DNA of 34,598 bases, taken from contig JADLGZ010000010.1 in assembly GCA_020849075.1 (NCBI GenBank), positions 1-34,598 on the forward strand, given 5' to 3'. The stretch's first letter is position 1. The number at the start of each line of letters is the position of its first letter. Below are positions 2,653-25,379 of the stretch, in pieces. The notes beneath the pieces are model-generated. The model had not been told where the DNA came from, searched no databases, and worked only from the letters and a program-made list of their open reading frames with translations. The stretch comes from Fimbriimonadaceae bacterium. GTDB lineage: Bacteria; Armatimonadota; Fimbriimonadia; Fimbriimonadales; Fimbriimonadaceae. A program made the translations under genes and the position numbers.

Positions 2653-2728
2653 GGTCGGTTAGCTCAGTTGGTAGAGCACTACAATGACACTGTAGGGGTC
2701 ACAGGTTCAAGTCCTGTACCGACCACCA
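2653..2728 (+). tRNA. tRNA-Val(GAC)
   Basis: Acceptor GGTCGGT/ACCGACC, D-arm GCTC/GAGC, anticodon stem CTACA/TGTAG with loop ATGACAC (anticodon GAC), T-arm ACAGG-TTCAAGT-CCTGT, encoded CCA. Confidence 0.96.
2684..2728 (+). repeat. att direct repeat copy 1 (3' part of the intact tRNA-Val)
   Basis: ATGACACTGTAGGGGTCACAGGTTCAAGTCCTGTACCGACCACCA; exact match to 14115-14159 and 25335-25379. Confidence 0.93.
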
Positions 2729-2787
2729 CTCCTTTTGAACTTGAGGTCCTCTTTTTAGGGGGAGTGCATGAGACTCACTAGGGCTTG

Positions 2788-2817
2788 GTCTCTCCATTCG
2801 TCTCTCCACAGTCTCTC
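2788..2817 (+). promoter_or_regulatory. Putative integrase arm-type sites, right arm of element 1
   Basis: GTCTCTC at 2788, 2800 and 2811 (spacing 12 and 11 bp). Confidence 0.6.
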
Positions 2818-2908
2818 TTTTCACGTATTTTGATTCTCGGTTGAGCCTTGACTCAAGAATCGCTGATTGCCCTCATTTCCACCGACCACTAAACTCCACC
2901 ATTTCAAC

Positions 2909-3160
2909 ATGGAAGTGGGTTCGGGGCAAAAACTTGCTTATACGATTGACGAAGCAGCAGAGCTGCTCTCCCTATCACGGGCCAAGCTTTATCGACTTAT
3001 CGACACGTGCGAAATTGGCTCGGTCCTGATCGGTCGCTCCCGCCGTATCACGCACTCGCAGTTGGAGGAATTCCTTCGCCGCCTTGAAGCGCAGGATGTT
3101 GCTGCATCGTTGCACCTGCGGCAGCCGATTCGCCAATTTAGGCGCACCCAAGGAGCATAG
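2909..3160 (+). CDS. Excisionase-family/MerR-like HTH DNA-binding protein (element 1)
   Basis: YTIDEAAELLSLSRAKLYRLIDTCEIGSVLIGRSRRITHSQLEEFLRRLE is the typical excisionase/HTH_17 pattern; upstream of the integrase. Confidence 0.8.
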   Translation: MEVGSGQKLAYTIDEAAELLSLSRAKLYRLIDTCEIGSVLIGRSRRITHSQLEEFLRRLEAQDVAASLHLRQPIRQFRRTQGA

Positions 3161-3164
3161 CTGC

Positions 3165-4310
3165 ATGAAAGGAAGAGCCGATGACAACGACGGCTCATGC
3201 CGTGAAATCTTGACAGGTCGCCATGCTGGAAAATGGCGCGTACAATTCCGTTACCTAGATGAGACCGGCGTAAGGCGCCGGCTCTCAAAACTGTTTCAAA
3301 CCAAGACTGAGGGCAAGAAGTACTTGCAATGCCTTCGCCGCGGAGGGCGAGTCCAAGAAGCGGCGCAGACTCATGAACTAACATTTGGAGAGTGGTTTGA
3401 GTGGCTAGCGGAAAACGACTGGCCAGAAACGCTCGCTAGTGTCACCATCGCACAGCGTAGAGCCCGATTCAGGAAGTACTCCGCAAAGGTCTTTGGAAAC
3501 CAGCCTCTTAGCGGCATCGACGCATTGAAGGTCCGCGCCTTCTATCGCGAGCTACGAGGAGCGGGTGCAAGCGATTCGCTCATCATTTCGGTGAAGAGCG
3601 ATCTCGTCAGAGCATTCAACCAAGCAATCAACCCGTATCAGCAAGTCCCTCACACACTCGCAAATCCGTTCAGGCTTTCAGTGTCACAGCCTAAGCCGAG
3701 AGCGGCAGTTGCCCTCTCTGTTGAGCAGGTGAAGAATGCTATCAGTAGCCCATCACTGAGCCCTAGCCAGCAGGCACTTCTTGGGCTGCTCTTGCTGGCC
3801 GGGCTTCGTCTCGGCGAAGTGATGGCTATCACCAGGCAGCAGCTACGTCTTGATGATAACCTTATCGCGGTTGATAGGGCCGTTAAAGTTGAGTTTGGCG
3901 GAAAGCAGAGCGTTGGACTTCCAAAGAAGGACAAGACTCGAAACGCCGTGATGTGTCAGACACTCCAAGCATTATTTGAATCCTTCATCGAAGGCATGGA
4001 GCCTGAAACACTTCTTTGGCCAGCGGTTAGTGACAATAAGCCAAGGATGAAGAAGCGATTCTACGAGTTTTGGAAGGAGGCAGCGAAGTCAGCTGGGTTG
4101 CCGCCAGAAATGTCTCCCCACGACTGCAGGCTGACTCACATAAACCTCATCGAGAAACTCATGCCACTGGTATCGCCAACGACCTTAAAGGAGCATGTCG
4201 GTCACTCAGCGACGGGCGTCACCGAAGCCAACTATACGAGGCCGCTTAGTGCTTCGCAGGAAATCCTAAGGCGCGAGCTGGATCGAGTTTTCGGAGAAAT
4301 GTCCCAATAG
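3165..4310 (+). CDS. Site-specific tyrosine recombinase/integrase (element 1)
   Basis: AGLRLGEVMA (Arg), SPHDCRLTH (HxxR), EHVGHSATG (His), ANYTR (Tyr). Start chosen at MKGRADDNDGSC, matching the paralogs. Confidence 0.93.
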   Translation: MKGRADDNDGSCREILTGRHAGKWRVQFRYLDETGVRRRLSKLFQTKTEGKKYLQCLRRGGRVQEAAQTHELTFGEWFEWLAENDWPETLASVTIAQRRARFRKYSAKVFGNQPLSGIDALKVRAFYRELRGAGASDSLIISVKSDLVRAFNQAINPYQQVPHTLANPFRLSVSQPKPRAAVALSVEQVKNAISSPSLSPSQQALLGLLLLAGLRLGEVMAITRQQLRLDDNLIAVDRAVKVEFGGKQSVGLPKKDKTRNAVMCQTLQALFESFIEGMEPETLLWPAVSDNKPRMKKRFYEFWKEAAKSAGLPPEMSPHDCRLTHINLIEKLMPLVSPTTLKEHVGHSATGVTEANYTRPLSASQEILRRELDRVFGEMSQ

Positions 4311-4333
4311 CCCAGCTGCAGCTGGGCTTTTTC
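4309..4333 (+). terminator. Rho-independent terminator after integrase 1
   Basis: AGCCCAGCTGCAGCTGGGCT palindrome followed by a T-run; overlaps the integrase stop codon. Confidence 0.8.
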
Positions 4334-4409
4334 TTATATTTTCTTGGTAGACAGCGAACCGTTTGCCCTGCTTGAGACATATACTGGTAAGAGTTCTGTG
4401 TTTTCACCG

Positions 4410-4760
4410 ATGGCACTGAGTCACATTAATAACCCACGCAATGTTGGGCCGCTCGAGGGAGCGACCCACTATGGCGTTGCCGGTGTGCCAGGTGACGGAC
4501 CATTTGTTCAAATGTGGTTCATCGTAAACAGTGGCCAAATCGAACGCGGAACTTACAAGACCTACGGATGCCCAACCTCCATCGCCAGCGCGAGCATGAT
4601 TGCTGAGTTGGTGGCCGGAAAATCCGTAGAAACCGCACTCTCCTTAACCGAGGCTGACATTCGAGCTTTGCTTGCCTTTGTGCCCGAAGGAAAGGAAGAC
4701 TGCCCCCCAAGAGCGGTGCGCGCGCTCCAAAACGCGTTTGAGGAAAAGACTGATGACTGA
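4410..4760 (+). CDS. NifU/IscU-like scaffold homolog with degenerate Cys set (element 1)
   Basis: HINNPRNVGPLEGATHYGVAGVPGDGPFVQMWFIV...YKTYGCPTSIASASMIAELVAGKSVETAL...KEDCPPRAVRALQNA matches the IscU/NifU-N pattern; the first Cys (usually in GxPxCGD) is absent. Confidence 0.8.
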   Translation: MALSHINNPRNVGPLEGATHYGVAGVPGDGPFVQMWFIVNSGQIERGTYKTYGCPTSIASASMIAELVAGKSVETALSLTEADIRALLAFVPEGKEDCPPRAVRALQNAFEEKTDD

Positions 4761-4983
4761 ACTGCCCTTTAGCCCGGCCCGTGGCCCTGTTCAAGATTGT
4801 GATTCATGCGGTGACCCGAAGGGCGGCGTTTGCGTATTTGGATCGAACAATTCGCACTCACTGATGATGCCTCCTGGCGCTCCTGGCAGTGGTCCCTGGT
4901 GTCCCGCACCAAATCTTAGTAATGCAAGTGACATGGACAGTTGGAAGTGTCATTACGTCCGCCTCCTCCTTTCAAATCCATGA
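4753..4983 (+). CDS. Small Cys-rich protein coupled to RHS (element 1)
   Basis: MTELPFSPARGPVQDCDSCGDPKGGVCVFGSNNSHSLMMPPG...WCPAPN...; 8-bp overlap with the NifU-like gene and ATGA overlap with RHS; homologous to 19260-19487. Confidence 0.7.
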   Translation: MTELPFSPARGPVQDCDSCGDPKGGVCVFGSNNSHSLMMPPGAPGSGPWCPAPNLSNASDMDSWKCHYVRLLLSNP

Positions 4984-7900
4984 TACGCCCTGAAGTTTGG
5001 CCTTGGGAAATTGATGCAGCATCAGGCGGCTGCAAGATTGATCCTGTTGCTCACCACCCTCACCGGCCAATCCCCGATCCTGCAACTGGCCACCTCGTGG
5101 CCGACCCTGATATCGTTCTCAAAGCCAAGGGTTTCGATCTTGAGATCAGCTTCTTTTACAGCACCGCGTCTCAACCTGGAGGCGTAATGTGGGGGAACCG
5201 GCGATCTGCGAGTGTCAATATGCAGATCAAAATTGACCAAGTCAATGGCAACGTGAATGTCATTCGTGGCGATGGGAAGGTTTACGGCTTCAGCGGGATT
5301 TGGGCGCCAAGTACACCAACTTCGATGACGCCAAATCCGACGCTGTACAGCGGAACCGAACTCTTATGGGACGGGAGCCAGTTCATAGAGACGTTCCCAG
5401 ATGGCAAGACTGTAACTTATGGAGAAGAGCTCCAGGCCGACACTTACTACGCAGTTAGTGAGATTGAAGACCTATCGGGAAATGTGCACGCATACACCTA
5501 CGACGGCATCAATTTGATCCGTATCGAGGTGCCAGGCGGAAACCGCGTCACGTTCCATTACGATGGCGACGGGCATGTCGAAATGGTCCAGGACTGGGGC
5601 GACCGCCGATGGTTGATGACCTACGATGAGTTTGACCAGCTCGAAACTTATACACTGCCAACGGGCTGTCAGACGCAATACTTTTACCCTGGCGACAACG
5701 GTCTAGTCAATGCCATTATGGACCCTCGGGGATATGTGTCGAGTTACACGTTCAATGACTTTGACCGTGTAGAAACGATGTCTCTCGGTACAGCTACGTG
5801 GACCTATACGTATTACCAGTATGCTGGCGGCCCCTTAGGCTCCCGCGTTGAGTCCCCTACCGGAGCGATTACAACCTACCTGCTTGATAGCGTCGGCTTT
5901 ACAATCGCCAAGGAAGTGCCGGAGGGCTACATTATTTCCTATGCCTACGATGCGACTGGGAACAAGATTATCGAGGAGATGCCTTACGGTCACGTCCTTA
6001 GCCTCACCTACAACGCATCCAATTTGCCCCTTACGAGCCGAGACCCTCTCGGCAATGTGACGACCTACAATTACGACGTCAATAACAATCTGGTCAGCCT
6101 CATGAATGCGCTTGGCGAGGTGACGACAATGACCTATGATGGGCAACGTCGCATGACGAGCCGAATGGACGCCCTGGGCAGAGTCACATCGAATGTTTGG
6201 AATACCGATGGCACCCTCAAGGCGCAAGTTGATGGGCGCGGACTTCGTACAACGTACGCCTATGACGCAGTAGGAAATCTAGCCAGCACGCTATACGCGG
6301 ACCACTCGGTGTCGACCTATACCTACGATGTTCTCAATAGGCGGATTTCTGCCAAGGACCCATTAGGGCGCGTGACTACAACGGCCTACGATGCGGTCGA
6401 CCACATTGTCTCGATCATGAACGCGGCCGGTGAGATATCGACTTTTATCTATGATTCCTGCTTCCTGCAACAGAAAGTGAACCCTCTAGGTTATCGCACG
6501 ACTTACACCTACGAGCGGTACGGAAAGGTCCGAACGGTTAAGAACGCCCTTGGGCAAGTCACGACGACCAACTACGACAATATGGGTTACCCTGTCACCA
6601 TTCAGAACGCTCTGGGTTACGTGACCACCATGATCTACAATGCCGCAAATCAAAGGCTTGCGGTTCAAGACGCCAATGGTAACCGAGTGACAACGGCATA
6701 TGATTTCGGTGGCAGGCCAGTCAATTTCATCAACGGAGAAGGCATCATAACAAGTACGGTTTATGATGCTCGTGGCCCGATCGCTTCAGAAGATGCCCTA
6801 GGCCGGCGAACGACGATGATTATGGATGCGCTGGGGAGGCGTATCGCAACGCAAACTCCCATGAACTTCCGAACTACCACGATCTACGATCAGGCAGGGC
6901 AGGTTCGGGCAACTCAGGATGCAAGAGGATTCCTAACCACAAATTGCTATGACCTGGCGGGCAATCTTGTAACCGTCTGTGATGCAAGAGGTTTTATTAC
7001 AACGCGGGTCTACGAAGATACCAGTAATCGAGTGAGAGTTAGTCAAGATAAGACGGGCGCTCGCACGACTTTCACTTACGATGTCTCGGGCCAACCCATC
7101 GCACTTCAGAATGCGAGGGGGTTTCGCACGACTCTTACGTTCGACCTCGCAGGTCGAACGAGGAGCATCCAGAATCCGTTTGGCTGGCGGACAACGTACA
7201 GCTACGATGCGGCCGGCCAAAACGTCGAGGTCAAAAACGTCAGCAGTTTTAGCCACACGACGATTTATGATGCCCTTGGGCGAGTCACGGCAACGCAAAC
7301 ACCACTCAATATTCGGACAACATATTCATACGATGCTGTTGGACACCAGATCGATACGCAAGACGCAGACGGGTTCCGATGGAGTACGATTTACGACCCA
7401 GCAGGACGCGCAATTGCCAGCCAAACGCCACTGAACAATCGCACGACAACCACTTATGACAAAGCCAATCGCCCAATCGAAGTGAGGAACCCACGGGGCT
7501 ATGTAACAACGAGCACGTACGATTTGGCGTCAAGAGTCATTTCCCAACAAAACCCGCTTGGTCATCTAAAGCAATTTGGCTATGATGCTGACGGGCGCAA
7601 TGTGACGATCGCCAACGCCATCGGCGGCATTATCACAATGGTGTACGACGAGGTCAGCCATCTTCTTGAAATTGCTAATGAGTTGAATCACAGGACAACC
7701 TATACTTACGACCCGGTCGGCAATGTGTCCACCAGGCGCTTCGCCAATGGGGATAGAACCACTTACTTGTACGATCCCGTTGGGCGGCAGATAGGCAGAC
7801 ACTACGCCGATAATGCACGTGTGACCTTAACATACGACGCCGTCGGGAACTTGGTGGAGCAAGCTGAAAACATTGGTTCAGGTTCCGCTCAAATGACCTA

Positions 7901-9653
7901 CGATTCCATCAATCGGATGGACTACCGTCAGGACCAGTACGACATGGCCTTGCAGTACTTCTATGAGCGTACCGGAGAGCTAGCCCAAATTTTCGACCCG
8001 GGCACTAGCAGTTATGTGTCTTCTTGGACCCGCGACCCAGATGGCCGCATCGTAAGATACGAGAACTCCAATGGAGATCCGATAGAGCCAAGCTATGATG
8101 GCAGGGGCCACAAAATCGCAATCTCTTATTACTCAGGCCACTTGCAGGAGTTTGCATTTGATAGCGATGGCCGTAATGTTGGTATCAAGGATACGGTAGG
8201 GTCCGAAGTCCAGCGCTTCACCTATACGTTCGATGGTAATGGTAATCGAACGGGGACACAAGATAAGAATGGCTCGACTTCGGCCTATGCCTATGATGCG
8301 CTCGACCGCATTGAGTCCGATACGACAACGGGGACGGACGCGCACACATACACCTATGTGTTTGATTCGCGAAGTAATTTGACTCACCATACCGAAGACA
8401 CGGTCATTACTACTATGACCTACGATGCGGCAAGTCGAATTCAGACGATGCAGATCGCCGCAGCTTCGGGAAGCTATGTTCATGACTTGAATGGAAACAT
8501 GGTGCAGAGCGGCGCCACAGTCATGACCTATGACAAGGAAAATCGTCTTCGAACAATTCCTGATAAGAACATCGGGGGAGCCATAGTAACCTTCACATAC
8601 GACGCCTTTAGCCGTCTGCGGGAAGAAAACTTTGGCGGTGACATCAATGAGGTCTATTGGCTCGATGATATTAGTATAGGTGAGCGATCTGACTCCACAC
8701 CAGTTGGCCAGTTTTCGAATATATACATGTCGCTTGACGGAGTCATCATGGGCGACACTGGAAATCCGTTCATTGCCCCAGAATGGTCCGACTATCTGGT
8801 CGACTTCCTTGGGTCTATTACTGGCGAAGTGGATGCAGGCGGAGGTGTTTCTGGAACCAGACGTTACAAGCCATTTGGCCCGCGCTTATCTGGTGCCGCC
8901 GTGGCTCGTCAAACATTTGGGTTTACGGGAAACACGGGTTCAAGACATACCGCCATAGCCTTGGCTGAACAATATAATCGGTTCCGAATTTACACGTCAT
9001 GGCTTAAGCAGTGGACGACACGAGATCCGATTTGGCCAAGCGAGTTGCCGTACTCTTATGTACAAGGTAATCCGACAAGTTGGCTAGACCCATACGGGCT
9101 TGCGCGAAATGGAGATATGCCTTCGCCTCCTAATCGACCCTTGATACCCACGGACGAAAACCCCGAAGATAATATAAACACGGGTTTTGATCCATGTCTT
9201 TCGATCGTGTTTCCGCTTGGGACATGGGGACCAGCCGCCATAACGCTAAAAATAAGGTTCTGTCAGCAACTTTATGACACAACTTGTTGTTTAGGTCCGG
9301 CGGCTTCAAAGTGTACTAAGATTCAGGCCTCTGTAGCGGCCGAACTACCTTTATCCCCAGCCGATCTGTTCGACAATCTTAGTGACCAAGTTAGTCAGGC
9401 AATTGAAGCGATCCTTGGTATAGCTGCAGGATTTGGAAATCTTACCGTTGGACAAGTCCCGATTAAGGGGTGCCCTGCTCCCCGACAAGACGTGACCGTG
9501 GAAGTATGTATTGGAGGGTGCATTTTTATTCAAACCCTAAAGGGCTGTTTTGCTATTCCACCTGGCAAGCTATACTTAGAGTCAAAGACTGGTTACTGTG
9601 GGATATTAAGTGCGGAGATAGAAGGCTCAATTTCGATCGAAAACTGTGAGTAA
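4980..9653 (+). CDS. RHS/YD-repeat polymorphic toxin-like protein (element 1)
   Basis: Dozens of TTYxYDxxGxxxxxxxxxG repeats; C-terminal core RDPIWPSELPYSYVQGNPTSWLDPYGL then a variable Cys-rich tail. Start at MIRPEVWPWEIDAASGGCKIDPVAHHPHRPIPDP by comparison with the paralog. Confidence 0.93.
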   Translation: MIRPEVWPWEIDAASGGCKIDPVAHHPHRPIPDPATGHLVADPDIVLKAKGFDLEISFFYSTASQPGGVMWGNRRSASVNMQIKIDQVNGNVNVIRGDGKVYGFSGIWAPSTPTSMTPNPTLYSGTELLWDGSQFIETFPDGKTVTYGEELQADTYYAVSEIEDLSGNVHAYTYDGINLIRIEVPGGNRVTFHYDGDGHVEMVQDWGDRRWLMTYDEFDQLETYTLPTGCQTQYFYPGDNGLVNAIMDPRGYVSSYTFNDFDRVETMSLGTATWTYTYYQYAGGPLGSRVESPTGAITTYLLDSVGFTIAKEVPEGYIISYAYDATGNKIIEEMPYGHVLSLTYNASNLPLTSRDPLGNVTTYNYDVNNNLVSLMNALGEVTTMTYDGQRRMTSRMDALGRVTSNVWNTDGTLKAQVDGRGLRTTYAYDAVGNLASTLYADHSVSTYTYDVLNRRISAKDPLGRVTTTAYDAVDHIVSIMNAAGEISTFIYDSCFLQQKVNPLGYRTTYTYERYGKVRTVKNALGQVTTTNYDNMGYPVTIQNALGYVTTMIYNAANQRLAVQDANGNRVTTAYDFGGRPVNFINGEGIITSTVYDARGPIASEDALGRRTTMIMDALGRRIATQTPMNFRTTTIYDQAGQVRATQDARGFLTTNCYDLAGNLVTVCDARGFITTRVYEDTSNRVRVSQDKTGARTTFTYDVSGQPIALQNARGFRTTLTFDLAGRTRSIQNPFGWRTTYSYDAAGQNVEVKNVSSFSHTTIYDALGRVTATQTPLNIRTTYSYDAVGHQIDTQDADGFRWSTIYDPAGRAIASQTPLNNRTTTTYDKANRPIEVRNPRGYVTTSTYDLASRVISQQNPLGHLKQFGYDADGRNVTIANAIGGIITMVYDEVSHLLEIANELNHRTTYTYDPVGNVSTRRFANGDRTTYLYDPVGRQIGRHYADNARVTLTYDAVGNLVEQAENIGSGSAQMTYDSINRMDYRQDQYDMALQYFYERTGELAQIFDPGTSSYVSSWTRDPDGRIVRYENSNGDPIEPSYDGRGHKIAISYYSGHLQEFAFDSDGRNVGIKDTVGSEVQRFTYTFDGNGNRTGTQDKNGSTSAYAYDALDRIESDTTTGTDAHTYTYVFDSRSNLTHHTEDTVITTMTYDAASRIQTMQIAAASGSYVHDLNGNMVQSGATVMTYDKENRLRTIPDKNIGGAIVTFTYDAFSRLREENFGGDINEVYWLDDISIGERSDSTPVGQFSNIYMSLDGVIMGDTGNPFIAPEWSDYLVDFLGSITGEVDAGGGVSGTRRYKPFGPRLSGAAVARQTFGFTGNTGSRHTAIALAEQYNRFRIYTSWLKQWTTRDPIWPSELPYSYVQGNPTSWLDPYGLARNGDMPSPPNRPLIPTDENPEDNINTGFDPCLSIVFPLGTWGPAAITLKIRFCQQLYDTTCCLGPAASKCTKIQASVAAELPLSPADLFDNLSDQVSQAIEAILGIAAGFGNLTVGQVPIKGCPAPRQDVTVEVCIGGCIFIQTLKGCFAIPPGKLYLESKTGYCGILSAEIEGSISIENCE

Positions 9654-10119
9654 CGAAGTGACATATAACAGGTCTGCCGATGCCCTAAGAAAAGAAGCCG
9701 CAAAGTTCCGTATTGGCTTTGTTTTGATTGGATTGGCAGCTTTCAGCCTTTCAGGGTGGAGCATTGTCTCACGTGCACCTGAAGTCTTCTTCTTTGCTTG
9801 TGTACTCGTGCTATTCTTTTTTGGATTGTTTAGGTATCGGCCCAGCTTTCCAGCAAAGATTGTTACGCACCAAGATTGGGTTACCTTTGTGATGCCGGAC
9901 GGGAAAACTGTCGAATTCAGATCTGGCGATGAAGTGCATGTAAAAAAGCCGTTGGGCAGACCATCAGTTTCAATTGGGCCCTTCCAGTTGGTTAGGGGAG
10001 AGACCAAAGTGACATTAGATGAAGGCTACGAGGGATTTTCAGGCCTGGTTCGTGACCTGTATCGACTCTTTCCCGAGTGCAAAGAAAAGTTAGCGTATTG
10101 GACCGCGATTCCAGAATAA
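9646..10119 (+). CDS. Candidate membrane-anchored immunity protein for RHS 1
   Basis: GTG start overlaps the RHS stop by 8 bp; hydrophobic hairpin FVLIGLAAFSLSGWSIV / VFFFACVLVLFFFGLF followed by a soluble tail. Confidence 0.55.
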   Translation: MSNEVTYNRSADALRKEAAKFRIGFVLIGLAAFSLSGWSIVSRAPEVFFFACVLVLFFFGLFRYRPSFPAKIVTHQDWVTFVMPDGKTVEFRSGDEVHVKKPLGRPSVSIGPFQLVRGETKVTLDEGYEGFSGLVRDLYRLFPECKEKLAYWTAIPE

Positions 10120-10140: not shown

Positions 10141-10680
10141 TTAGTTGGTTAACATTTCGCATTTGCGCGGGATCCGTCCGATTCCGTAGCAATCGACAAG
10201 TCGGTCTGGCTCTACAGTGTGTTCCCAAACCTGCACGCTTTCTAAACCTTTCAAAAGACCTTCCATTCCTCCGATTCTGATTCGCCAACAATCCAGCGGA
10301 TATGGGTGGTATGGCCACGAAGCAGGAGCGGTAAGTACGAGCCATCCCCCCGGCTTCAGCACGCGGCGCATTTGCTCGACGGCAATCCACGGTGTCTCCA
10401 TGTGTTCGAGGGCCTGCCCGGAAAGCACGATATCAAACTCGCGACCGAGGGAAACAAGATCATATGCACTGACGACTCTATCGACATTAGGTCCCGCCGT
10501 CATGTCAGTTCCAAAGTAGGAGAGCCCCAGGGATTCAACGATGGGTCGGTAAGTCCCGTTTACGTCGTAAGAACCCACGTCCAAGAGTTCGCCTTCGCCA
10601 TGCTGGTTTTCAGCAACGATCTTTGTTAGCAACTCACCTATGGTCCGATAACTCGACTCATGCATTTCGACAGTGTACAC
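10141..10680 (-). CDS. SAM-dependent methyltransferase (type 11-like)
   Basis: LLDVGSYDVNGTY motif I-like, FDIVLSGQALEHM, MRRVLKPGGWLVLTAP. Confidence 0.85.
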   Translation of the reverse strand: MYTVEMHESSYRTIGELLTKIVAENQHGEGELLDVGSYDVNGTYRPIVESLGLSYFGTDMTAGPNVDRVVSAYDLVSLGREFDIVLSGQALEHMETPWIAVEQMRRVLKPGGWLVLTAPASWPYHPYPLDCWRIRIGGMEGLLKGLESVQVWEHTVEPDRLVDCYGIGRIPRKCEMLTN

Positions 10681-16733: not shown

Positions 16734-18682
16734 ACACCGCACTCCTTTGGCAAGGCAACGCCACAATTGTACTCAAACTTGACGTTCCAGCATGCACTTT
16801 TTATGACAATACAGTAGTCGTCAAAGCACTTTTTGTATTTAGCTCCTGTGAATTTGGAACAGTCGTTTTTTTGCCCTTCAATCAAACACTTCAAGGAGAG
16901 AATGTTTGCACGGCACTCGGACTCGTTCACAAACTGCTTCGGTAATGGCGGCACGTAAAACCCATGCTCGTGGCAACCTAGCCCACCCTTTTTATTGCGC
17001 CAGTCTATATGATCGCGCTCGTGCTTCTTTATACAATTGTAGATCCCAATAGGCCAGTCCTTCTTAGTATTGTAAACGCACGCATGCATTACCCCATCGC
17101 AGCACACTAGGCCGCCATATTGATTCTTGCTGACGAGGCCCTTGTGCTCAGCGTATCGGCAGGGTCCCCCGGGCCACGAACCGCACTCGTGTGGAGTGGG
17201 CCAGTCACTTGCGCATGGTGCTAAGCCAGTGGGATCAATGTACGTTGTAGGATTGCCCATCGCGTACGCGTATGGGGGTTCGCCGCCGATCCATTCTGCC
17301 TCCCGAACCCTGGTCGTGAATTGGGCGAGGCCGGTCATGTAGGGGCGATGTCCGGGCTGGTATTGGGTAAACGGTTGCGGACCCGATACCTGCGGCGTTG
17401 GCCGCGGTGGTCCAGACGCTTTCGGAACTTGGTTAGTTGGTGGTTTCATTTGACGCTCTCGGTTTTGACGTTTGATTTCTTGGATTCTCTTGATTTCTTC
17501 CAACTGGCTTACTCTTGGTAACGGATTCTCAAGTGAAAATGGTCCCAAGGATTGGCCGTCTGGCGTGCTGAAGGTGATCTGTTGACCGCTTGCCACTCTT
17601 TGCATCTCATAAGTCGCGCCGTTGGGGATAGCTTCCTTGGCGATTACGCGGGCGACCTCGCATTTCAGAGCTACGGAACAGCCTGGGAGCCAATTTGGCC
17701 GCTTGTCTTGCTTCGTTATCTTGCCGCGCGGAGGTATCAGGTCACCCTCCAGATCGATTGGATCGCCGCTGTATTCGAAGGCAAGCAGCAAGCAGGCATC
17801 GATTGACTTGCGCACTGACTCCTTACTTCTGTAGCCGTTTTCAAGCACCGCTTTCGCCATGCCTGCGGCTAGTAAGGCAAGCTCTGGATCGTACTGGCGA
17901 ACAATTTCGCTGGCGCTTGTGGCTGGAAGTGGCAAATTGGTTGTGGGCATTGTCGTCAAAACGATGTCTGCCGCAAGTGCCAACGCCATAAAGACCCCTT
18001 CCCGCCTCGTTTCTGGCCGATAGCCTGCTTCCATTGCCCTGCCCAACGAGGCCATGCTCTCCTCATGTGCGACGTGAATCACGTCAACATCAAAGCCCTT
18101 TTCCGCAATGATTTCGTTCACCCATAGATCAAGAACGAAGGATTGGACAAAGCAAAGCTGGTTCATGCGCGGTCCATCCTTAACCTCGCGAAAGACCCGT
18201 TCATCCTCTCCTTGCTCAACGAATTCGATCCATGCGTGTCCCAGCTCATGCGCAAGGTGCGTCTCATGCACTCGTGCCGCGTCGATAAAGAGAAGGACGA
18301 AGTCAGGGTGGCCGATCGTATTGATGTAGTGGCACTCGAGCGCACCTTTGTCGCGCCTCAACTCGGGAGTTGTGTCGAAGATCGCCAACTCCTTTGGCGT
18401 GCATGCCATTACCTGGTCGATAAACTGCACGAGCTTATCGCTGAGGTTTCTAATGCTGACAACGGGATACAGGTCATCGTCAGAGGGGCCTTGTTCTCGA
18501 ATTCGGCCGATGGTATTTACGGTCGGAGCGTGCCCATGTTGTTCGACAACGAACTCGATGGCGTGCTTGTTCGTGAGCTTTGCACCCAAAGCGGGAAGGC
18601 TGTGGGTGTACCGCCTCATCACGACATCGCCGGTTGGCGAAGCGACCATCAACGCATCTCTTTGTATGTTGCTGGCTTGCAC
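16709..18682 (-). CDS. Zincin-like metallopeptidase domain fused to RHS-core remnant and Cys-rich toxin-like C-terminus
   Basis: THLAHELGHAWIEF (HExxH), Pro-rich linker, GGEPPYAYAMGNPTTYIDPTGL RHS core end, then CIKKHERDHIDW... with 17 Cys. Confidence 0.75.
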   Translation of the reverse strand: MQASNIQRDALMVASPTGDVVMRRYTHSLPALGAKLTNKHAIEFVVEQHGHAPTVNTIGRIREQGPSDDDLYPVVSIRNLSDKLVQFIDQVMACTPKELAIFDTTPELRRDKGALECHYINTIGHPDFVLLFIDAARVHETHLAHELGHAWIEFVEQGEDERVFREVKDGPRMNQLCFVQSFVLDLWVNEIIAEKGFDVDVIHVAHEESMASLGRAMEAGYRPETRREGVFMALALAADIVLTTMPTTNLPLPATSASEIVRQYDPELALLAAGMAKAVLENGYRSKESVRKSIDACLLLAFEYSGDPIDLEGDLIPPRGKITKQDKRPNWLPGCSVALKCEVARVIAKEAIPNGATYEMQRVASGQQITFSTPDGQSLGPFSLENPLPRVSQLEEIKRIQEIKRQNRERQMKPPTNQVPKASGPPRPTPQVSGPQPFTQYQPGHRPYMTGLAQFTTRVREAEWIGGEPPYAYAMGNPTTYIDPTGLAPCASDWPTPHECGSWPGGPCRYAEHKGLVSKNQYGGLVCCDGVMHACVYNTKKDWPIGIYNCIKKHERDHIDWRNKKGGLGCHEHGFYVPPLPKQFVNESECRANILSLKCLIEGQKNDCSKFTGAKYKKCFDDYCIVIKSACWNVKFEYNCGVALPKECGVCDWGFIW

Positions 18683-18921
18683 CCTAGACCTAGTATATGG
18701 AATTTTTTGGCGGGCAGAGAAGTTTTTTGCGTTTGGTGCTGCTCATCGTACGGGCGTAGAACCATTGCCGTCTCACAAATCGAGCAGGTTTGAACTTAGT
18801 TCATCCCCCCTCACTTCCCTGATGCGAGCACGGAAGAGACTTCGTTTCACAATCTTTAAAAATCATCGAACCTTTTGCCTTGCTTGCGACATATACTGGT
18901 AAGAGTTCTGTGTTTTCACCG

Positions 18922-19263
18922 ATGGCACTGAGTCACATTAACAACCCTCGCAACGTGGGGCAGCTTGAAGGAGCGACCCATTACGGCGTTGCCGGCGTGC
19001 CGGGTGATGGACCTTTCGTCCAAATGTGGTTCATCGTAAACGGTGACCAAATCGAGCGCGGGACTTACAAGACCTACGGATGCCCAACCTCCATTGCCAG
19101 TGCGAGCATGATCGCTGAGCTAGTGGCCGGAAAGTCCGTAGCAACGGCGCTCTCCTTGACCGAGGCAGACATTCGAGCTTTGCTTGCATACGTGCCCGAG
19201 GGAAAGGGCGACTGCCCGCCAAGAGCAATACAGGCGTTACAGAACGCATTGGAGAAGTTATGA
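18922..19263 (+). CDS. NifU/IscU-like scaffold homolog with degenerate Cys set (element 2)
   Basis: Near-identical by eye to 4410-4760: HINNPRNVGQLEGATHYGVAGVPGDGPFVQMWFIVNGDQIERGTYKTYGCPTSIASASMIAELVAGKSV. Confidence 0.8.
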   Translation: MALSHINNPRNVGQLEGATHYGVAGVPGDGPFVQMWFIVNGDQIERGTYKTYGCPTSIASASMIAELVAGKSVATALSLTEADIRALLAYVPEGKGDCPPRAIQALQNALEKL

Positions 19264-19487: not shown

Positions 19488-19504
19488 AGTTAGAGAAGAT
19501 AAAG

Positions 19505-22500
19505 ATGGACCGTCCAGAACTTTGGCCCTGGGAAGTTGACGCAGCCGCTGGTGGCTGCAAGATTGATCCCGTTGCGCATCATCCCCACAGACCGATTCCC
19601 GACCCGGTAACGGGACACCTAGTGGTGGACCCTGAGATCGTTCTAAAAGCTCGAGGTTTCAATCTCGAGATTAGCTTCTTCTACAACACTGCATCTCAAT
19701 TTGCACCTGGATGCTGGGGCAAGCTGAGGTCCGCGAGCGTTAATGTTCGGCTATTGGAAGGGAGTAATGAAGTTTGGTTGATTCGGGGAGATGGAAAGTC
19801 TTACCGATTTACCGGTTCATGGGCACCTACAGTGGTCACCACGATGACTGCTGACGCAGATATGTACAGCGGCACTCAGCTAGTCTGGGATGGCGCACAA
19901 TTTGTGGAGACGTTCGCCGATGGCAAAACAATCACATATGGTGAAGCACTTCCCGACAGCTACTTTGGCGCCACTGAAATCGCGGACGCATCGGGCAATA
20001 TCCAGACCTACACATATAGCTCTGGCAACCTTGAGAGCATTGAGGTGCCGGGTGGAAACAAAGTCACGTTTCTCTACGATGGCTCACTAGTCGAGACGGT
20101 TCAAGACTGGGGCGGCCGGCGATGGACTTTTACTTATGACGGTGATAGCCAGCTGGAGACCTTTACAATTCCAACTGGATGTCAGACTCAATATAGCAAC
20201 CCATCGACCGATGGATTGATCGATGCAATCACCGATCCTCGCGGATATACAACTAGCTACACGTTTTACGGAGATGGGAGAGTTGAGACCATGTCCCTGG
20301 GAGCCGCGGTCTGGACATACACCTATAGCACTGGTTATGGAACGTACGGCGGATCGGCCGTCGAGTCACCGACCGGTGCCTTAACAACGTATTTATTCGA
20401 CGTTAACGGCGTGATCGCCGAAAAGCAAGTGCCCGAGGGTTACTCAATTCAGTACGTGTATGACGTCAATGGCAACATTGCTCGTGAGATCATGCCCTAC
20501 GGCGACGTAGTCTCGATGACCTACAACGCCTTCAACCAACCTCTCACAAGCAAAGACCCGCTCGGTAACACCACCACATTCAAGTACGACACGGACAATA
20601 ACTTGGTGAGTGTTATGAATGCTCTGGGTCAGATTACAACCATGGCCTACGATGGTGACCGACGCATGGTCAGCCGGATGGACGCCCTGGGCCGCGTTAC
20701 CACCAATGTCTGGAATGGCGATGGCACTCTGCGAGCGCAAGTTGATGGTCGGGGGTTACGCACTACGTATGCGTATGATGCTGTCGGCAACCTTGCCAGC
20801 ACGCTTTACTCAGATGGCTCTGTTGCAACCTACACCTACGACACGCTGAATCGCAGAGTCGCGGTCAAAGACCCGCTTGGGCGCATTACGACGACGGCCT
20901 ACGATGCGGCAGACAATGTAGTATCGGTGATAAATGCCGCTAACGAAGTCACGACATACATCTACAGCACCTGCTTGCTCCAAGCCGTCGTAAACCCTCT
21001 TGGCCACCGGACAAGCTACACCTATGAACGATACGGCAAGGTTCGTACAGTCACCAACGCGCTGAACCAGGTGACGACAACCAATTACGACAATATGGGT
21101 TATCCGGTCACGATCCAGAATGCTCTGGGCTTCGTGACAACGATGGTCTATAACGCCGCTAAGCAGCTCCTCTCGGTGCAGGATGCCAATGGCAATCGCA
21201 CAACAACCAACTATGATGCCGGTGGCCGGCCCGTAACGTACATCAACGGCGCGGACATTATCACGACGACAGTTTATGATGCTCGGGGCCCCGTTGCGAC
21301 CGTCGATGGCTTAGGTAGAAGGACCACTATGGTCTTTGATGCAGTGGGCCGACAGATTGCAACACAGAGCCCAATGAACTTCCGCACGACGACCATTTAT
21401 GACGCGGCAGGGCAAGTTTGGGCAGTTGAAGACGCGCTGGGCTACCGAACGACGAACAGCTATGATCTCGCCGGCAACTTAGTTACGGTCATTGACGCCA
21501 GAGGTTTTGTCACGACCCAGATTTACGAGACCACGTCAAACCGTGTGCGGGCAACACAGGACGCGACCGGGGCCAGGACGACTTACAGCTATGATATAGG
21601 TGGCCAAGTGGTGACCACGATGAACGCACGTGGGTACGTTACAACAACCACGTATGATGCGGTGGGGCGGGTGAAGGAAGTGCGAGATGCGCTGGGCTAT
21701 CGAACGACCTATAGCTACGATGCGGCGGGCCAGAATACGGCCGTCAAAAACGCTCGTAACAACACTTTCACGACCATTTATGACGCATTGGGCCGGGTGG
21801 CGGCGAGCCAGACACCGCTGAATATCCGCACCACGAATATTTATGATGCAGCTGGTCAACAGATCGCAACGCAAGATGGCGATGGCCACCGATGGACAAC
21901 GATTTACGATCCCGGTGGAAGGGTCTGGGCAACTCAGACTCCTTTGAACTATCGGACCACGACGACTTATGACGGCGCAGACAGGCCTTTCTTGAGCCAG
22001 AATCCGCGTGGCTATGTCACGACCACCGTGTATGACGCGGCGAATCGCGTGATCTCGATCATGAATGCGCTTGGCCATGTCAAGCAATTCGGATACGACC
22101 TCGATAGCCGCAATGTCACGATCGTGAACCCTGCGGGCGGCACAATAACGATGGCCTATGACAATGCCGGGCAGATGATTGGTATAGCCAATGAACTGAA
22201 CCAGCGCACAACATACACCTATGACCCCATCGGTAATGTTGCGACCAGGAAGTTCGCCAACGCCGATGTGACGTCCTACACGTACGATCAAGTTGGCAGA
22301 GAATCAAAACGCGAGTACATGGATGGCTCTAAGGTGACGTTTGCATACGACACCGTCGGGAATCTCACCACCATGATGGACGCGCTTGGTACGGCAACCT
22401 ATACCTACGATGCGGTGGACCAAACCCTTCTAGAAGTGGACGAGTCAGCTCGCAAGCAACAGTTTACGTATGACGCGGTAGGGAATCGTACACAACTAAC

Positions 22501-24247
22501 CTTCACTGACATAGGTCACTTTTACACGTGGGCATACGACAACGATGATCGACAAATCCAAACGATCGACCCACTAGATAACGAGGTCAACACCCAGTTT
22601 AATGCCAGGGGATTACGCACAACCGTTACCTATCAAGGTGGACGAAACCAAGTTTTCACATATGACAATGCAGGGCGGAATGTTGAAATCTTAAACAACT
22701 CAAACCTAAAGGTCGAGATGTTCACGTACACGTACGATGAGAATAGTAATGTCTTTACCTGGAAGCATGCTACCAACGTAGCGACGTACACCTATGACGC
22801 CATAGACAGGCTAACCGCCGATACGACGACGGGATCAAATGCTCATACATATGGATACAGCTATGATTCGCGCGGCAATATCCTGACGAATAACGAGTCG
22901 GGGACGATTACAACGCACTCTTACGATGCTGCTAGCAGATTGTCGGTGTCTCTTGAGGGCTCCATTCCCACGACCTACGTTTACGACGTGAATGGGAATC
23001 CAGTTCAGATCGAGAAGGGTTCTGACCAGGTCTCAATGGCATATGACTTTGAGAACCAGATGTCGTATTGGGAGGACAACATTGGGAACACAACCTACTT
23101 CGCCTATGATCCTTTCATGCACTTGAAAGAAGACAACAACGTTGCTACTACAGCACGGTGGCACATGTGGCTCGAGGATATGATTGTTCGGACCTTCGAT
23201 ACAGGTGGAGGTACGCGTGCTTACACGACGAACGATGGCGTAATCGTTGGCGAGGTTGACGACCTAACTGGTACGCCTGCGACTACCTACTATCTGACCG
23301 ACCTCTTGGGTTCGGTGACGGGCACTCACTTTACCGGGACCTTCCCGACCACGAGCCGCCGATTTACTCCGTATGGCAGGCTAATGACAGGCACCGCCCT
23401 CACGCCATACGTTCCTGCATGGATAGGGGGGCATGGCTACTACAACAATGACCTGCCATGGGCAGAGTACATGGCTTGGCACCGGTTTGTCTCGACGAGA
23501 ACGAGCCAATGGACCACGAGAGACCTGCTTTGGCCCGATGAGTTGCCGTATGGGTATGCCTGGGGAAATCCAACAACTTGGAGTGATCCAAACGGGCTTG
23601 GACCTTGTACCTTGCAAATTCCCAGGAATAGCATTGCGGATACGCCGTGTAGCGATAAAGCCGGAAGGTCTGCTTGGAACACATATATCTACAAGTACTG
23701 CAAGTGCGCAAAAACCCGCGAAACAAAGCTCCGATGTGACGAACTCTCACGAGAGTATTACAAGAAATGCAAGGGACAACCCGGGGCGGGCCCGTTTGCA
23801 CCTGGTCCCTCAGGAATTGTTCCGCTAGACGTTCAAAAGTGCTTTGTATACCAATGCGAGTGGAAGCCTGGGCACTATGCAGGGCTCGCGCCTGGGCATC
23901 TCTTTATTTGTGCCTCTATTACGGGCAAGGGTCGGAGGAGAAAATGCTCGGCAGGCTTAAGTCCATTCAGCAACACAGCACCGGGATGGACGCCGGGGTA
24001 TGTTAGTGATACAGACTACGACTGTCCTCCTACTAATGAACCTGAGATAAAATGCCGCCTAGTATGGGCCGGTTCCGGAGATGATTTGCAGTGCAGATAT
24101 GCTGGAGCCCTATGTGATTGCATTGATCGATTACCGCCAAAACAGGATTATAATTTCTGGACCAGAAACTGCACCCACTTTGTGGGAGAATTAGATGAGT
24201 GCGCCAAAGCGGCCGCAATGAAGTCATGGGCAAAAGGAAAGCAGTAG
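19505..24247 (+). CDS. RHS/YD-repeat polymorphic toxin-like protein (element 2)
   Basis: MDRPELWPWEVDAAAGGCKIDPVAHHPHRPIPDP; repeated TTxYDxxG motifs; core RDLLWPDELPYGYAWGNPTTWSDPNGL; variable tail ending in NFWTRNCTHFVGEL. Confidence 0.93.
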   Translation: MDRPELWPWEVDAAAGGCKIDPVAHHPHRPIPDPVTGHLVVDPEIVLKARGFNLEISFFYNTASQFAPGCWGKLRSASVNVRLLEGSNEVWLIRGDGKSYRFTGSWAPTVVTTMTADADMYSGTQLVWDGAQFVETFADGKTITYGEALPDSYFGATEIADASGNIQTYTYSSGNLESIEVPGGNKVTFLYDGSLVETVQDWGGRRWTFTYDGDSQLETFTIPTGCQTQYSNPSTDGLIDAITDPRGYTTSYTFYGDGRVETMSLGAAVWTYTYSTGYGTYGGSAVESPTGALTTYLFDVNGVIAEKQVPEGYSIQYVYDVNGNIAREIMPYGDVVSMTYNAFNQPLTSKDPLGNTTTFKYDTDNNLVSVMNALGQITTMAYDGDRRMVSRMDALGRVTTNVWNGDGTLRAQVDGRGLRTTYAYDAVGNLASTLYSDGSVATYTYDTLNRRVAVKDPLGRITTTAYDAADNVVSVINAANEVTTYIYSTCLLQAVVNPLGHRTSYTYERYGKVRTVTNALNQVTTTNYDNMGYPVTIQNALGFVTTMVYNAAKQLLSVQDANGNRTTTNYDAGGRPVTYINGADIITTTVYDARGPVATVDGLGRRTTMVFDAVGRQIATQSPMNFRTTTIYDAAGQVWAVEDALGYRTTNSYDLAGNLVTVIDARGFVTTQIYETTSNRVRATQDATGARTTYSYDIGGQVVTTMNARGYVTTTTYDAVGRVKEVRDALGYRTTYSYDAAGQNTAVKNARNNTFTTIYDALGRVAASQTPLNIRTTNIYDAAGQQIATQDGDGHRWTTIYDPGGRVWATQTPLNYRTTTTYDGADRPFLSQNPRGYVTTTVYDAANRVISIMNALGHVKQFGYDLDSRNVTIVNPAGGTITMAYDNAGQMIGIANELNQRTTYTYDPIGNVATRKFANADVTSYTYDQVGRESKREYMDGSKVTFAYDTVGNLTTMMDALGTATYTYDAVDQTLLEVDESARKQQFTYDAVGNRTQLTFTDIGHFYTWAYDNDDRQIQTIDPLDNEVNTQFNARGLRTTVTYQGGRNQVFTYDNAGRNVEILNNSNLKVEMFTYTYDENSNVFTWKHATNVATYTYDAIDRLTADTTTGSNAHTYGYSYDSRGNILTNNESGTITTHSYDAASRLSVSLEGSIPTTYVYDVNGNPVQIEKGSDQVSMAYDFENQMSYWEDNIGNTTYFAYDPFMHLKEDNNVATTARWHMWLEDMIVRTFDTGGGTRAYTTNDGVIVGEVDDLTGTPATTYYLTDLLGSVTGTHFTGTFPTTSRRFTPYGRLMTGTALTPYVPAWIGGHGYYNNDLPWAEYMAWHRFVSTRTSQWTTRDLLWPDELPYGYAWGNPTTWSDPNGLGPCTLQIPRNSIADTPCSDKAGRSAWNTYIYKYCKCAKTRETKLRCDELSREYYKKCKGQPGAGPFAPGPSGIVPLDVQKCFVYQCEWKPGHYAGLAPGHLFICASITGKGRRRKCSAGLSPFSNTAPGWTPGYVSDTDYDCPPTNEPEIKCRLVWAGSGDDLQCRYAGALCDCIDRLPPKQDYNFWTRNCTHFVGELDECAKAAAMKSWAKGKQ

Positions 24248-24633
24248 CAATAGTTCTGAAAAGCCTTGTGGCTTTTTCGGCAATATGTGTTGCCGGTAAA
24301 CTCTATTTTGATCGGGTAAGTGAAGAGTTGAAACACAATCAGCTCCGTACTGGTTCGCAGATTGTTAGTGAGGCATACAGTGGTAAGGCCCTTGATCTTA
24401 GTAGCAATCCGGTGGCGAGAAAGTTAGTACGTATTGCGGAAGATTATGGTGAGGTTCAATCGTTCGATATAGTCGAGGCGGGCGCGGTGCCGTACAAAGA
24501 CGTAGCCACATTTATCATTAGTGTGCGCCGACAGCAAGGCTTTACGACAGAACGCGTAACATTACGGGGTCAAAAAACTGCAGAAGTAAAGGTCATGAGT
24601 ATTCACCGGGAAAAGAGCACCCCAGAGAATTAA
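24226..24633 (+). CDS. Candidate membrane-anchored immunity protein for RHS 2
   Basis: 22-bp overlap with the RHS 3' end; single N-terminal TM segment VAIVLKSLVAFSAICVAGKLYF. Confidence 0.55.
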   Translation: MGKRKAVAIVLKSLVAFSAICVAGKLYFDRVSEELKHNQLRTGSQIVSEAYSGKALDLSSNPVARKLVRIAEDYGEVQSFDIVEAGAVPYKDVATFIISVRRQQGFTTERVTLRGQKTAEVKVMSIHREKSTPEN

Positions 24634-24738
24634 AGCAAAAAAGACTGTCTTGTTCACAAGATTTCGTTTCTACAAATTGGTGGGCTCCCCAGGGAACCAA
24701 CCGTTGGGTGGCACGGATCCCAATTGCGGGTAGAATTC

Positions 24739-25110
24739 ATGCCCGACTCTTTGGAGTCGGGCAAGATTTACGTCTCGATGGAGCACGGCGTCGCAATACA
24801 CATGTGCTGCTGCGGCTGTGGAAACAGAGTCGTAACACCAATAGCCCCATCGGAATGGCAGCTAACGTACAACGGCAAGGTTGTCAGCCTCACTCCTTCC
24901 ATAGGAAACTGGAGCTTCCCATGCCGCTCTCACTATTGGCTCACGCCAAAGGGCATCCGATGGGCCGAACAGTGGAGCGACGATCAGATCGCAAGGAATC
25001 GCGCGGAGTCAGCTCCGGTTGATGGAGACAATCCCCTACTTGCAGGGGAATCAGACCACGCCAGCCATCCAACTTGGTGGCAGCGTCTAATAAAGTTCTT
25101 TGGCCTTTGA
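24739..25110 (+). CDS. DUF6527-like metal-binding protein
   Basis: MPDSLESGKIYVSMEHGVAIHMCCCGCGNRVVTPIAPSEWQLTYNGKVVSLTPSIGNWSFPCRSHYWL resembles the DUF6527 pattern as I remember it. Confidence 0.65.
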   Translation: MPDSLESGKIYVSMEHGVAIHMCCCGCGNRVVTPIAPSEWQLTYNGKVVSLTPSIGNWSFPCRSHYWLTPKGIRWAEQWSDDQIARNRAESAPVDGDNPLLAGESDHASHPTWWQRLIKFFGL

Positions 25111-25158
25111 CCATTGTACGCGAATCAGACATGAGGCCCCTAAACTGTATGCAACCAC

Positions 25159-25182
25159 GGAAGGTGCGGGGCCTTCCTTTTT
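25159..25182 (+). terminator. Rho-independent terminator after the DUF6527-like gene
   Basis: GGAAGG-loop-CCTTCC followed by TTTTT. Confidence 0.6.
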
Positions 25183-25240
25183 GAGATCAATGCATTTGTT
25201 TGCTGGGCGTACTCTTGACCCGGGGGGAAGTAGTTTATTG

Positions 25241-25258
25241 GTCTCTCCAAGGTCTCTC
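25241..25258 (+). promoter_or_regulatory. Putative integrase arm-type sites, left arm, end of element 2
   Basis: GTCTCTC at 25241 and 25252 (spacing 11 bp), upstream of att copy 3. Confidence 0.6.
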
Positions 25259-25334
25259 AATTGGGAGAGCAATACTGAGAATATCTGAGACAGTGGTAGA
25301 CTCCAAAAAAGTTGGCGGAGCTTGCAGAATTCCT

Positions 25335-25379
25335 ATGACACTGTAGGGGTCACAGGTTCAAGTCCTGTACCGACCACCA
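25335..25379 (+). repeat. att direct repeat copy 3 (tRNA-Val 3' fragment)
   Basis: Exact 45-bp copy, preceded by GAATTCCT at 25327-25334. Confidence 0.93.

What the first reader, a model, noticed from the sequence alone, without database searches (positions are those of the whole stretch)
2653..25379. Head-to-tail array of three integrative elements in one tRNA-Val gene
The tRNA 3' 45 bp is repeated exactly at 14115 and 25335. Each repeat is followed by its own xis-like gene, tyrosine recombinase and terminator, giving units of 11,431 bp, 11,220 bp and at least 9,264 bp. Independent integrases with accretion at one site and no phage or conjugation genes recall cargo-type elements such as tycheposons, but here they are densely stacked and loaded with toxin-like cargo.
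Basis: partly seen in the sequence, partly recalled or inferred. Interest (0 to 1): 0.75.

Follow-up and report, generated by a model that had tools for sequence, protein, structure and literature searches.

The report
Tandem tRNA-anchored mobile gene islands
Three related mobile DNA islands, each with its own integration enzyme and a cargo of toxin-like or sugar-modifying genes, sit head to tail in one tRNA gene of an uncultured Armatimonadota bacterium; a close relative lacks exactly two of them, and similar stacked islands recur across the bacterial family.

Summary
tRNA-Val(GAC) is at 2653-2728, and its last 45 bp recur exactly at 14115 and 25335. Each copy is followed by a xis-like gene, an intact tyrosine integrase and a terminator. 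A fourth copy, on contig C167, closes the array against chromosomal genes, so the array has at least three units.

The main refutation test was run. In a same-genus genome (G004) the left flank aligns through the tRNA and then jumps to window 25335: units 1 and 2 (22,651 bp) are exactly absent. The G004 integration module is a unit-2/unit-3 mosaic that switches inside the integrase gene.

Every att copy is flanked by paired GTCTCTC motifs, which I read as integrase arm-type sites. The paired motif occurs 146 times in 85 genomes of the family (reversed control: 4). It marks tandem junctions in 10 genomes, including tRNA-Arg arrays of up to six att copies over 75-79 kb with one integrase or none.

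This is site-specific accretion, as in Dehalococcoides ssrA islands and CIME/ICE composites, in a new integrase family. Cargo is Rhs toxins, glycosyltransferases and, on C167, a Menshen defence system. Excision and transfer were not shown.

The parts
63..1439 (+). Chromosomal left flank: AtpD-like ATP synthase beta subunit (100% aa in G004, 97.6% in G003)
2653..2728 (+). tRNA-Val(GAC), intact; its 3' 45 bp (2684-2728, from the anticodon loop on) is the att core of the left-most attL
2788..2817 (+). Three GTCTCTC motifs (2788, 2800, 2811): putative integrase arm-type sites of unit 1, integrase side
2909..3160 (+). xis1, HTH_17 excisionase-like
3168..4310 (+). int1, tyrosine recombinase (380 aa)
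4309..4328 (+). Terminator-like hairpin after int1
4374..4760 (+). NifU/IscU-N-like protein, unit 1
4941..9653 (+). Rhs/YD-repeat polymorphic toxin gene, unit 1
9646..10119 (+). Small protein overlapping the Rhs stop, candidate immunity gene
   Evidence: position only; no family hit
10141..10680 (-). Methyltransferase, unit 1 cargo
11381..12184 (+). GT2 glycosyltransferase, unit 1 cargo
12762..13997 (-). 411-aa protein of unknown family, unit 1 cargo
   Evidence: no hit
14021..14038 (+). Two GTCTCTC motifs: distal (attR-side) arm of unit 1
14115..14159 (+). att core copy 2 (45 bp exact): attR of unit 1 / attL of unit 2
14218..14248 (+). Three GTCTCTC motifs: integrase-side arm of unit 2
14345..14584 (+). 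xis2, HTH_17
14589..15728 (+). int2, tyrosine recombinase
15734..15758 (+). Terminator-like hairpin after int2
16709..18682 (-). 657-aa protein with a weak Rhs-associated-core match and an HELGH metalloprotease-like motif, unit 2 cargo
   Evidence: TIGR03696 below cut-off; motif read from the sequence
18880..19263 (+). NifU/IscU-N-like protein, unit 2
19502..24247 (+). Rhs/YD-repeat polymorphic toxin gene, unit 2
24724..25110 (+). DUF6527 protein, unit 2 cargo
25241..25258 (+). Two GTCTCTC motifs: distal arm of unit 2
25335..25379 (+). att core copy 3 (45 bp exact): attR of unit 2 / attL of unit 3; G004 joins its tRNA directly to the sequence that starts here
25439..25469 (+). Three GTCTCTC motifs: integrase-side arm of unit 3
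25567..25806 (+). xis3, HTH_17
25811..26956 (+). int3, tyrosine recombinase
26956..26976 (+). Terminator-like hairpin after int3
27539..28918 (+). HD-domain hydrolase, unit 3 cargo
28961..30568 (-). Methyltransferase-GT2 fusion, unit 3 cargo
30542..33550 (+). GT2-TPR protein, unit 3 cargo
33898..34598 (-). Rhs-associated core and C-terminal tip, cut by the contig end; the third unit continues beyond the window (distal end probably on contig C167, attR at C167:6753-6797)

Best explanation
The locus is a site-specific accretion array. A lineage-specific family of cargo-type integrative elements of Fimbriimonadaceae (Armatimonadota) inserts by its own tyrosine integrase at the anticodon-loop/3' half of a tRNA gene. 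Each insertion duplicates 45 bp of tRNA-Val(GAC) and restores a whole tRNA. Each copy of the core is a new target, so related elements stacked head to tail in one orientation: three integrase-bearing units, closed by a fourth core copy on contig C167. The integrase is inferred to bind paired GTCTCTC arm-type sites (three on the integrase side, two on the distal side), with the HTH_17 protein as directionality factor. Units are gained by integration at a core copy. They are lost by excision between cores or, as the mosaic module of G004 suggests, by recombination between neighbouring integrase genes. Shown: repeats, intact genes, conserved arms, closure of the array, exact absence of units 1+2 in G004, recurrence of arrays in relatives. 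Inferred: integrase-arm binding, current mobility, route of transfer.
For: Exact 45-bp cores at 2684, 14115, 25335 and C167:6753, with no other copy in the genome. C167 carries the distal arm, the core, then chromosomal genes. G004 C9 aligns 1-2741 to window 1-2740 (92.3%) and 2686-11940 to window 25335-34598 (88.8%), so units 1 and 2 are exactly absent; G004 C49 carries an attR with the same right-flank gene (98% aa) as C167. G004 matches unit 2 from the attL through the 5' part of int, and unit 3 from the 3' part of int onward. In the window 13 of 15 plus-strand GTCTCTC motifs lie within 110 bp of a core. The paired motif occurs 146 times in 85 family genomes against 4 for the reversed control, and twice in 28 genomes of other families of the order (sums mine). 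Homologous integrases sit beside tRNA-Val(GAC/CAC/UAC), tRNA-Arg(CCU) or a tRNA-Thr, mostly with the same arms. tRNA-Arg(CCU) arrays: G033 six copies, G001 five, G119 four, G009 four (two contigs), G120 three, G029 three. Integrases are under purifying selection (dN/dS about 0.07-0.08 where dS is measurable).
Against: No excised circle, empty-site read or experiment is available. No genome with an empty version of exactly this atpD-tRNA-Val-ch111 site was found; G001 and G002 carry the tRNA without the element but in a different neighbourhood. In G003 the two flanks are about 70 kb apart, so chromosomal rearrangement complicates the comparison. C10 and C167 do not overlap, so a further unit could lie in the gap. 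Arm-site function is inferred from position and conservation only.
Confidence: 0.88

Rival explanations
1. The array is a fossil: a few old integrations now fixed, with the integrases in slow decay, so the units are no longer mobile.
For: Units are strongly diverged (int1 against int2/int3 saturated at synonymous sites). Many related arrays keep one integrase or none, as expected of decaying, CIME-like units.
Against: All three integrases are full length with their catalytic residues and low dN/dS. Cores are identical at 45 of 45 bases although flanking arms differ by up to about 30%. G000 and G004 differ by two whole units although their flanks are 92% identical.
Confidence: 0.2
2. The repeats arose by local tandem duplication of one island followed by divergence of the cargo, not by independent integrations.
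For: Units 2 and 3 share closely related xis-int modules (88% aa), and units 1 and 2 share an Rhs-NifU module (89% nt over 300 bp). Recombination between neighbouring int genes is suggested by the G004 mosaic.
Against: Cargo outside the module is mostly unrelated between units. int1 is closer to the integrase of G003 (83%) than to int2 or int3 (about 71%), so the modules have separate histories. Each unit has its own arms.
Confidence: 0.05
3. The elements are phage satellites or degenerate prophages carried in capsids.
For: HTH_17-type xis plus tyrosine integrase in a tRNA, sizes around 11 kb and defence/toxin cargo resemble phage satellites.
Against: Apart from the xis and int proteins, no PHROGs match among the cargo proteins scanned. 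No match of the integrase in 50,697 phage records or 72,556 plasmids. The viral-contig scan could not be run.
Confidence: 0.07
4. The repeats are an assembly artefact of a fragmented metagenome bin.
For: 248 contigs, 78% complete; both contigs that hold the array break in Rhs repeats.
Against: Units differ in sequence throughout, three att cores lie inside one contig, the separate G004 assembly gives the same boundaries, and similar arrays lie inside a single-contig genome (G119).
Confidence: 0.02

Closest known systems
Dehalococcoides ssrA genomic islands (PMC3146451)
   Same: Many tandem islands bounded by repeats of the 3' end of one structural RNA gene, all within about 100 kb; some units carry an integration module and others lack it; no duplicate islands within a strain; strain-variable cargo; proposed accretion.
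   Different: Serine (Ccr-like) recombinase, ssrA (tmRNA) target with a 20-bp repeat, reductive dehalogenase cargo. Here: tyrosine integrase plus xis-like protein, tRNA-Val/Arg/Thr targets, 36-45 bp repeats, paired GTCTCTC arms, Rhs/defence/metal cargo.
ICE/CIME/IME accretion in tRNA genes (reviewed in PMC5704250)
   Same: Site-specific stacking of elements at att sites of a resident element, with integrase-less units flanked by attL and attR.
   Different: ICEs and IMEs carry conjugation or mobilisation genes; none was seen in the proteins scanned here. The review says tandem functional elements generally have distantly related integrases; here they are close relatives (71-88%).
Tycheposons (described in PMC10872708)
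   Same: tRNA-anchored cargo islands with a tyrosine recombinase.
   Different: Different organisms and integrase; that paper cites 4-200 kb elements with nutrient-related cargo. Membership was not tested.
Additive flexible genomic islands marked by repeated tRNA 3' fragments (tRNA-Lys fGI-2 of Methylophilaceae, PMC10872708)
   Same: Recurring copies of a tRNA 3' end that delimit variable cargo.
   Different: No paired arm motif or per-unit integrase is described in the passages read.

Membership tests
Tyrosine-integrase integrative elements in tRNA genes | att core = 3' part of a tRNA, exact direct repeat at both ends, tRNA restored | tested here: met
   G011 gives a 36-bp exact pair around 34 kb at tRNA-Arg(CCU)
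Tyrosine-integrase integrative elements in tRNA genes | Intact integrase with catalytic R-H-R-H-Y residues next to attL | tested here: met
Tandem accretion array (ICE/IME/CIME, ssrA-GI type) | Several units, same orientation, separated by att copies, closed by a terminal attR and a chromosomal flank | tested here: met
Tandem accretion array (ICE/IME/CIME, ssrA-GI type) | Precise unit gain or loss between relatives | tested here: met
   G004 lacks exactly the 22,651 bp between core 1 and core 3
Tandem accretion array (ICE/IME/CIME, ssrA-GI type) | Excision as circles / experimentally shown mobility | not testable with these tools
   no reads or cultures available
ICE | Relaxase and type IV secretion genes | tested here: not met
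   no such Pfam match among proteins scanned from the window, C167, or the 20 proteins scanned from the G119 and G033 arrays; not every ORF was scanned
Phage satellite / prophage | Phage structural, packaging or capsid-remodelling genes | tested here: not met
   only xis and int match PHROGs among 10 proteins scanned; no integrase match in phage records
Tycheposon | Membership of the Prochlorococcus-type recombinase/tRNA module families | not tested
   reference sequences not fetched; resemblance by architecture only
Menshen defence system (C167 tail) | nsnA-nsnB-nsnC in order | tested here: met
   PADLOC NsnA 2e-112, NsnB 6.8e-92, NsnC 5.9e-48 on C167 3467-6649; the name Menshen for Nsn genes is from memory

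The most novel reading that the evidence does not exclude
A family-wide, undescribed integration platform in Fimbriimonadaceae: one integrase family with diagnostic paired GTCTCTC arms builds and reshuffles large-cassette arrays at several tRNA genes. In many arrays a single tRNA-proximal integrase would act on several integrase-less 8-28 kb cassettes that keep att cores and arms, a tRNA-based analogue of an integron for whole operons (toxins, defence, metal resistance).
Probability: 0.35. Interest if true: 0.65.

Novelty: new member of a known kind. Interest (0 to 1): 0.45.

Why it matters
It shows that stacked tRNA islands, known from Dehalococcoides, streptococci and a few other groups, are common in a little-studied phylum. 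It gives a sequence signature (paired GTCTCTC motifs 189-199 bp apart across a tRNA 3' end) that finds them without annotation. The G000/G004 pair gives a concrete case of loss or gain of whole units, possibly by recombination between neighbouring integrase genes. The arrays carry Rhs toxins, Menshen, CBASS, restriction systems and metal resistance, so they may be a main route by which these bacteria swap competition and defence genes.

Tried and rejected
Phage or plasmid origin: no integrase match in 50,697 phage or 72,556 plasmid records. Viral-contig scans failed three times for technical reasons, so they are no evidence either way. G001 as the empty tRNA-Val site: rejected as a strict test because its tRNA-Val lies in another neighbourhood. 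G003 as an empty or one-unit control: its contig ends inside the element and its flanks are rearranged. Joining C10 to C167: no overlap of 15 bases or more, and the two Rhs ends differ; no other contig of G000 bridges them (the only extra match, C244, is weak). PDB: only a weak integrase match (3nkh). Papers: none found in the held library describes tandem integrative arrays in Armatimonadota or Rhs-bearing tRNA tandem arrays of this type, and none links NifU-like proteins with Rhs.
Full report
CHECK OF THE OBSERVATION. The window is the whole contig C10 of a metagenome-assembled genome (G000: 2.08 Mb, 248 contigs, 78% complete). It holds one tRNA, tRNA-Val(GAC), at 2653-2728. The last 45 bases of that tRNA recur exactly at 14115-14159 and 25335-25379. 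Each copy is followed by an HTH_17 excisionase-like gene, a Phage_integrase tyrosine recombinase and a terminator-like hairpin directly after the integrase. The stated coordinates and unit lengths are correct. The three integrases align over their whole length (int2 and int1 are 88% and 71% identical to int3), with the conserved R, H-x-x-R, H and Y residues.

THE ARRAY IS CLOSED. The genome has a fourth exact copy on contig C167 (6753-6797). To its left lies the same kind of distal arm as left of 14115 and 25335. To its right the sequence passes into chromosomal genes: a 111-aa gene, an Fe-S oxidoreductase and an MlaE-like permease (the last two names are my reading of the sequence). C10 and C167 both break in Rhs repeat sequence and do not overlap. 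In G004 a homologous Rhs gene occupies the corresponding part of the island. The simplest reading is that unit 3 runs from 25335 across the gap to the attR on C167, giving three units; a fourth unit in the gap is not excluded.

PRECISE GAIN OR LOSS. In the same-genus genome G004 (its contig C9 matches JADZDX010000009, Fimbriimonadaceae bacterium SJ800), bases 1-2741 match window 1-2740 at 92.3%, and bases 2686-11940 match window 25335-34598 at 88.8%. G004 therefore has unit 3 joined directly to the tRNA; the 22,651 bp of units 1 and 2 are exactly absent. The right-flank gene ch111 follows the attR in both genomes (98% aa). At informative sites the G004 module follows unit 2 from the attL through xis and the 5' part of int, then unit 3 from the 3' part of int onward. 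That is what a deletion by recombination between int2 and int3 of a stacked array would leave. An exchange of modules at another time is also possible, so this step is inferred.

THE ATT ANATOMY. GTCTCTC occurs 15 times on the plus strand of the window, 13 of them within 110 bp of a core: three direct copies on the integrase side of every core and two on the distal side. Homologous integrases in relatives sit beside tRNA-Val(GAC), tRNA-Val(CAC), tRNA-Val(UAC), tRNA-Arg(CCU) or a tRNA-Thr, and most carry the same motif pairs although the core differs. The pattern GTCTCTC-N4-5-GTCTCTC has 146 matches in 85 genomes of the family, against 4 for the reversed pattern, and 2 matches in 28 genomes of other families of the order (sums are mine). 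I read these as arm-type binding sites of the integrase. This is inferred from position, conservation and established knowledge of lambda-type integrases; no binding was tested.

ARRAYS ARE COMMON IN THE FAMILY. Two arm pairs 189-199 bp apart on one strand mark a junction between two stacked units. Such junctions occur in 10 genomes (G000, G001, G009, G029, G033, G059, G105, G115, G119, G120). Counting the tRNA-Arg(CCU) core directly gives six copies over 75 kb in G033, five over 79 kb in G001, four over 68 kb in G119, four in G009 (two contigs), three over 71 kb in G120 and three over 26 kb in G029. Within these spans a PF00589 search finds one tyrosine integrase in G033, G009, G119 and G120 and none in G001 and G029. 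Most of those units are therefore without a tyrosine integrase and CIME-like. Against that background the window is unusual in that each of its three units keeps a full integrase. Their dN/dS is about 0.07-0.08 where synonymous divergence can be measured.

CARGO. Units 1 and 2 carry a NifU/IscU-N-like gene, a small Cys-rich ORF and an Rhs/YD-repeat gene of about 1,580 codons. Unit 1 also has a methyltransferase and a GT2 glycosyltransferase. Unit 2 has a 657-aa protein with a weak Rhs-core match and an HELGH motif, and a DUF6527 protein. Unit 3 has an HD hydrolase, a methyltransferase-GT2 fusion, a GT2-TPR protein and a cut Rhs tip. The C167 tail encodes NsnA, NsnB and NsnC, the Menshen anti-phage genes. 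The G004 tail encodes a CD-NTase, an E1-E2 protein and a phospholipase effector (type II CBASS) plus PDC-S53. The tRNA-Arg arrays of G033 and G119 carry type I restriction systems, copper ATPase, RND/HlyD efflux and a molybdopterin oxidoreductase. No relaxase, type IV secretion or phage structural gene appeared in any protein scanned; not every ORF was scanned.

COMPARISON WITH KNOWN SYSTEMS. The closest architecture in the papers read is the Dehalococcoides ssrA islands (PMC3146451): tandem islands bounded by repeats of an RNA gene's 3' end, 16 with an integration module and 15 without. They use a serine recombinase and a 20-bp ssrA repeat. Accretion of ICEs, IMEs and CIMEs in tRNA genes is reviewed in PMC5704250. 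Tycheposons and additive tRNA-Lys islands are described in PMC10872708. The present elements work like these accretion systems; I do not file them as ICEs (no conjugation genes seen), phage satellites (no phage genes seen) or tycheposons (membership not tested). What is new is the family: its integrase, its arm sites, its hosts and how widespread the arrays are. I found no paper on it in the held library.

LIMITS. No reads or cultures were available, so excision, circular forms and transfer are untested. The relatives are mostly drafts. The strict empty site (atpD-tRNA-Val-ch111) was not seen: G001 and G002 have an unoccupied tRNA-Val elsewhere, and in G003 the flanks are rearranged. The viral-contig collection could not be searched.

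Noticed in passing
window 4374-4983 and 18880-19487 (also L050 7572-7943 and G004 C49 near 7923-8267): A NifU/IscU-N-like protein plus a small Cys-containing ORF stands directly upstream of the Rhs gene in units 1 and 2; a NifU-like gene is also next to Rhs in G003 and G004. By eye it seems to have lost the first scaffold cysteine. No paper found links NifU-like proteins with Rhs; it could be a maturation or delivery partner.
   Followed up: partly
window 16709-18682 (-): 657-aa protein joining an HELGH metalloprotease-like region to a weak Rhs-associated-core match and a second HxxxH-type tail; possible Rhs-delivered metalloprotease toxin.
   Followed up: partly
G004 C49 1-4450 (L106): Several copies of Rhs C-terminal core plus different tips lie downstream of a full Rhs gene: a stock of orphan toxin tips.
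   Followed up: partly
L005 (C167) 3467-6649: Complete nsnABC (Menshen) defence operon right beside the terminal attR.
   Followed up: yes
L052 (G004 C49) 9912-16884: Type II CBASS-like operon (JAB-like peptidase, E1-E2, CD-NTase, phospholipase) plus a PDC-S53 candidate defence gene beside the attR.
   Followed up: yes
L052 3677-5335, L097 12491-14110, L153 12519-14288: Serine recombinase-like genes inside three of the islands; they may mark nested elements or a second integration system.
   Followed up: no
G003 C6 9.7 kb and 79 kb (L050, L087): The two chromosomal flanks of the array are about 70 kb apart and consistent with an inversion that has one breakpoint at the tRNA-Val/att site.
   Followed up: partly
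attL and attR regions of G009, G011, G033, G051, G015, G057: A second motif, TTGAACCTA, stands just outside the core on the integrase side and before the core on the distal side; possibly another Int or Xis site.
   Followed up: no
G011 and G033 islands: The G011 element (17-34.6 kb) aligns to G033 units 2 and 3 without the internal att copy, suggesting fusion of units by loss of an att site, or insertion of one in G033.
   Followed up: partly
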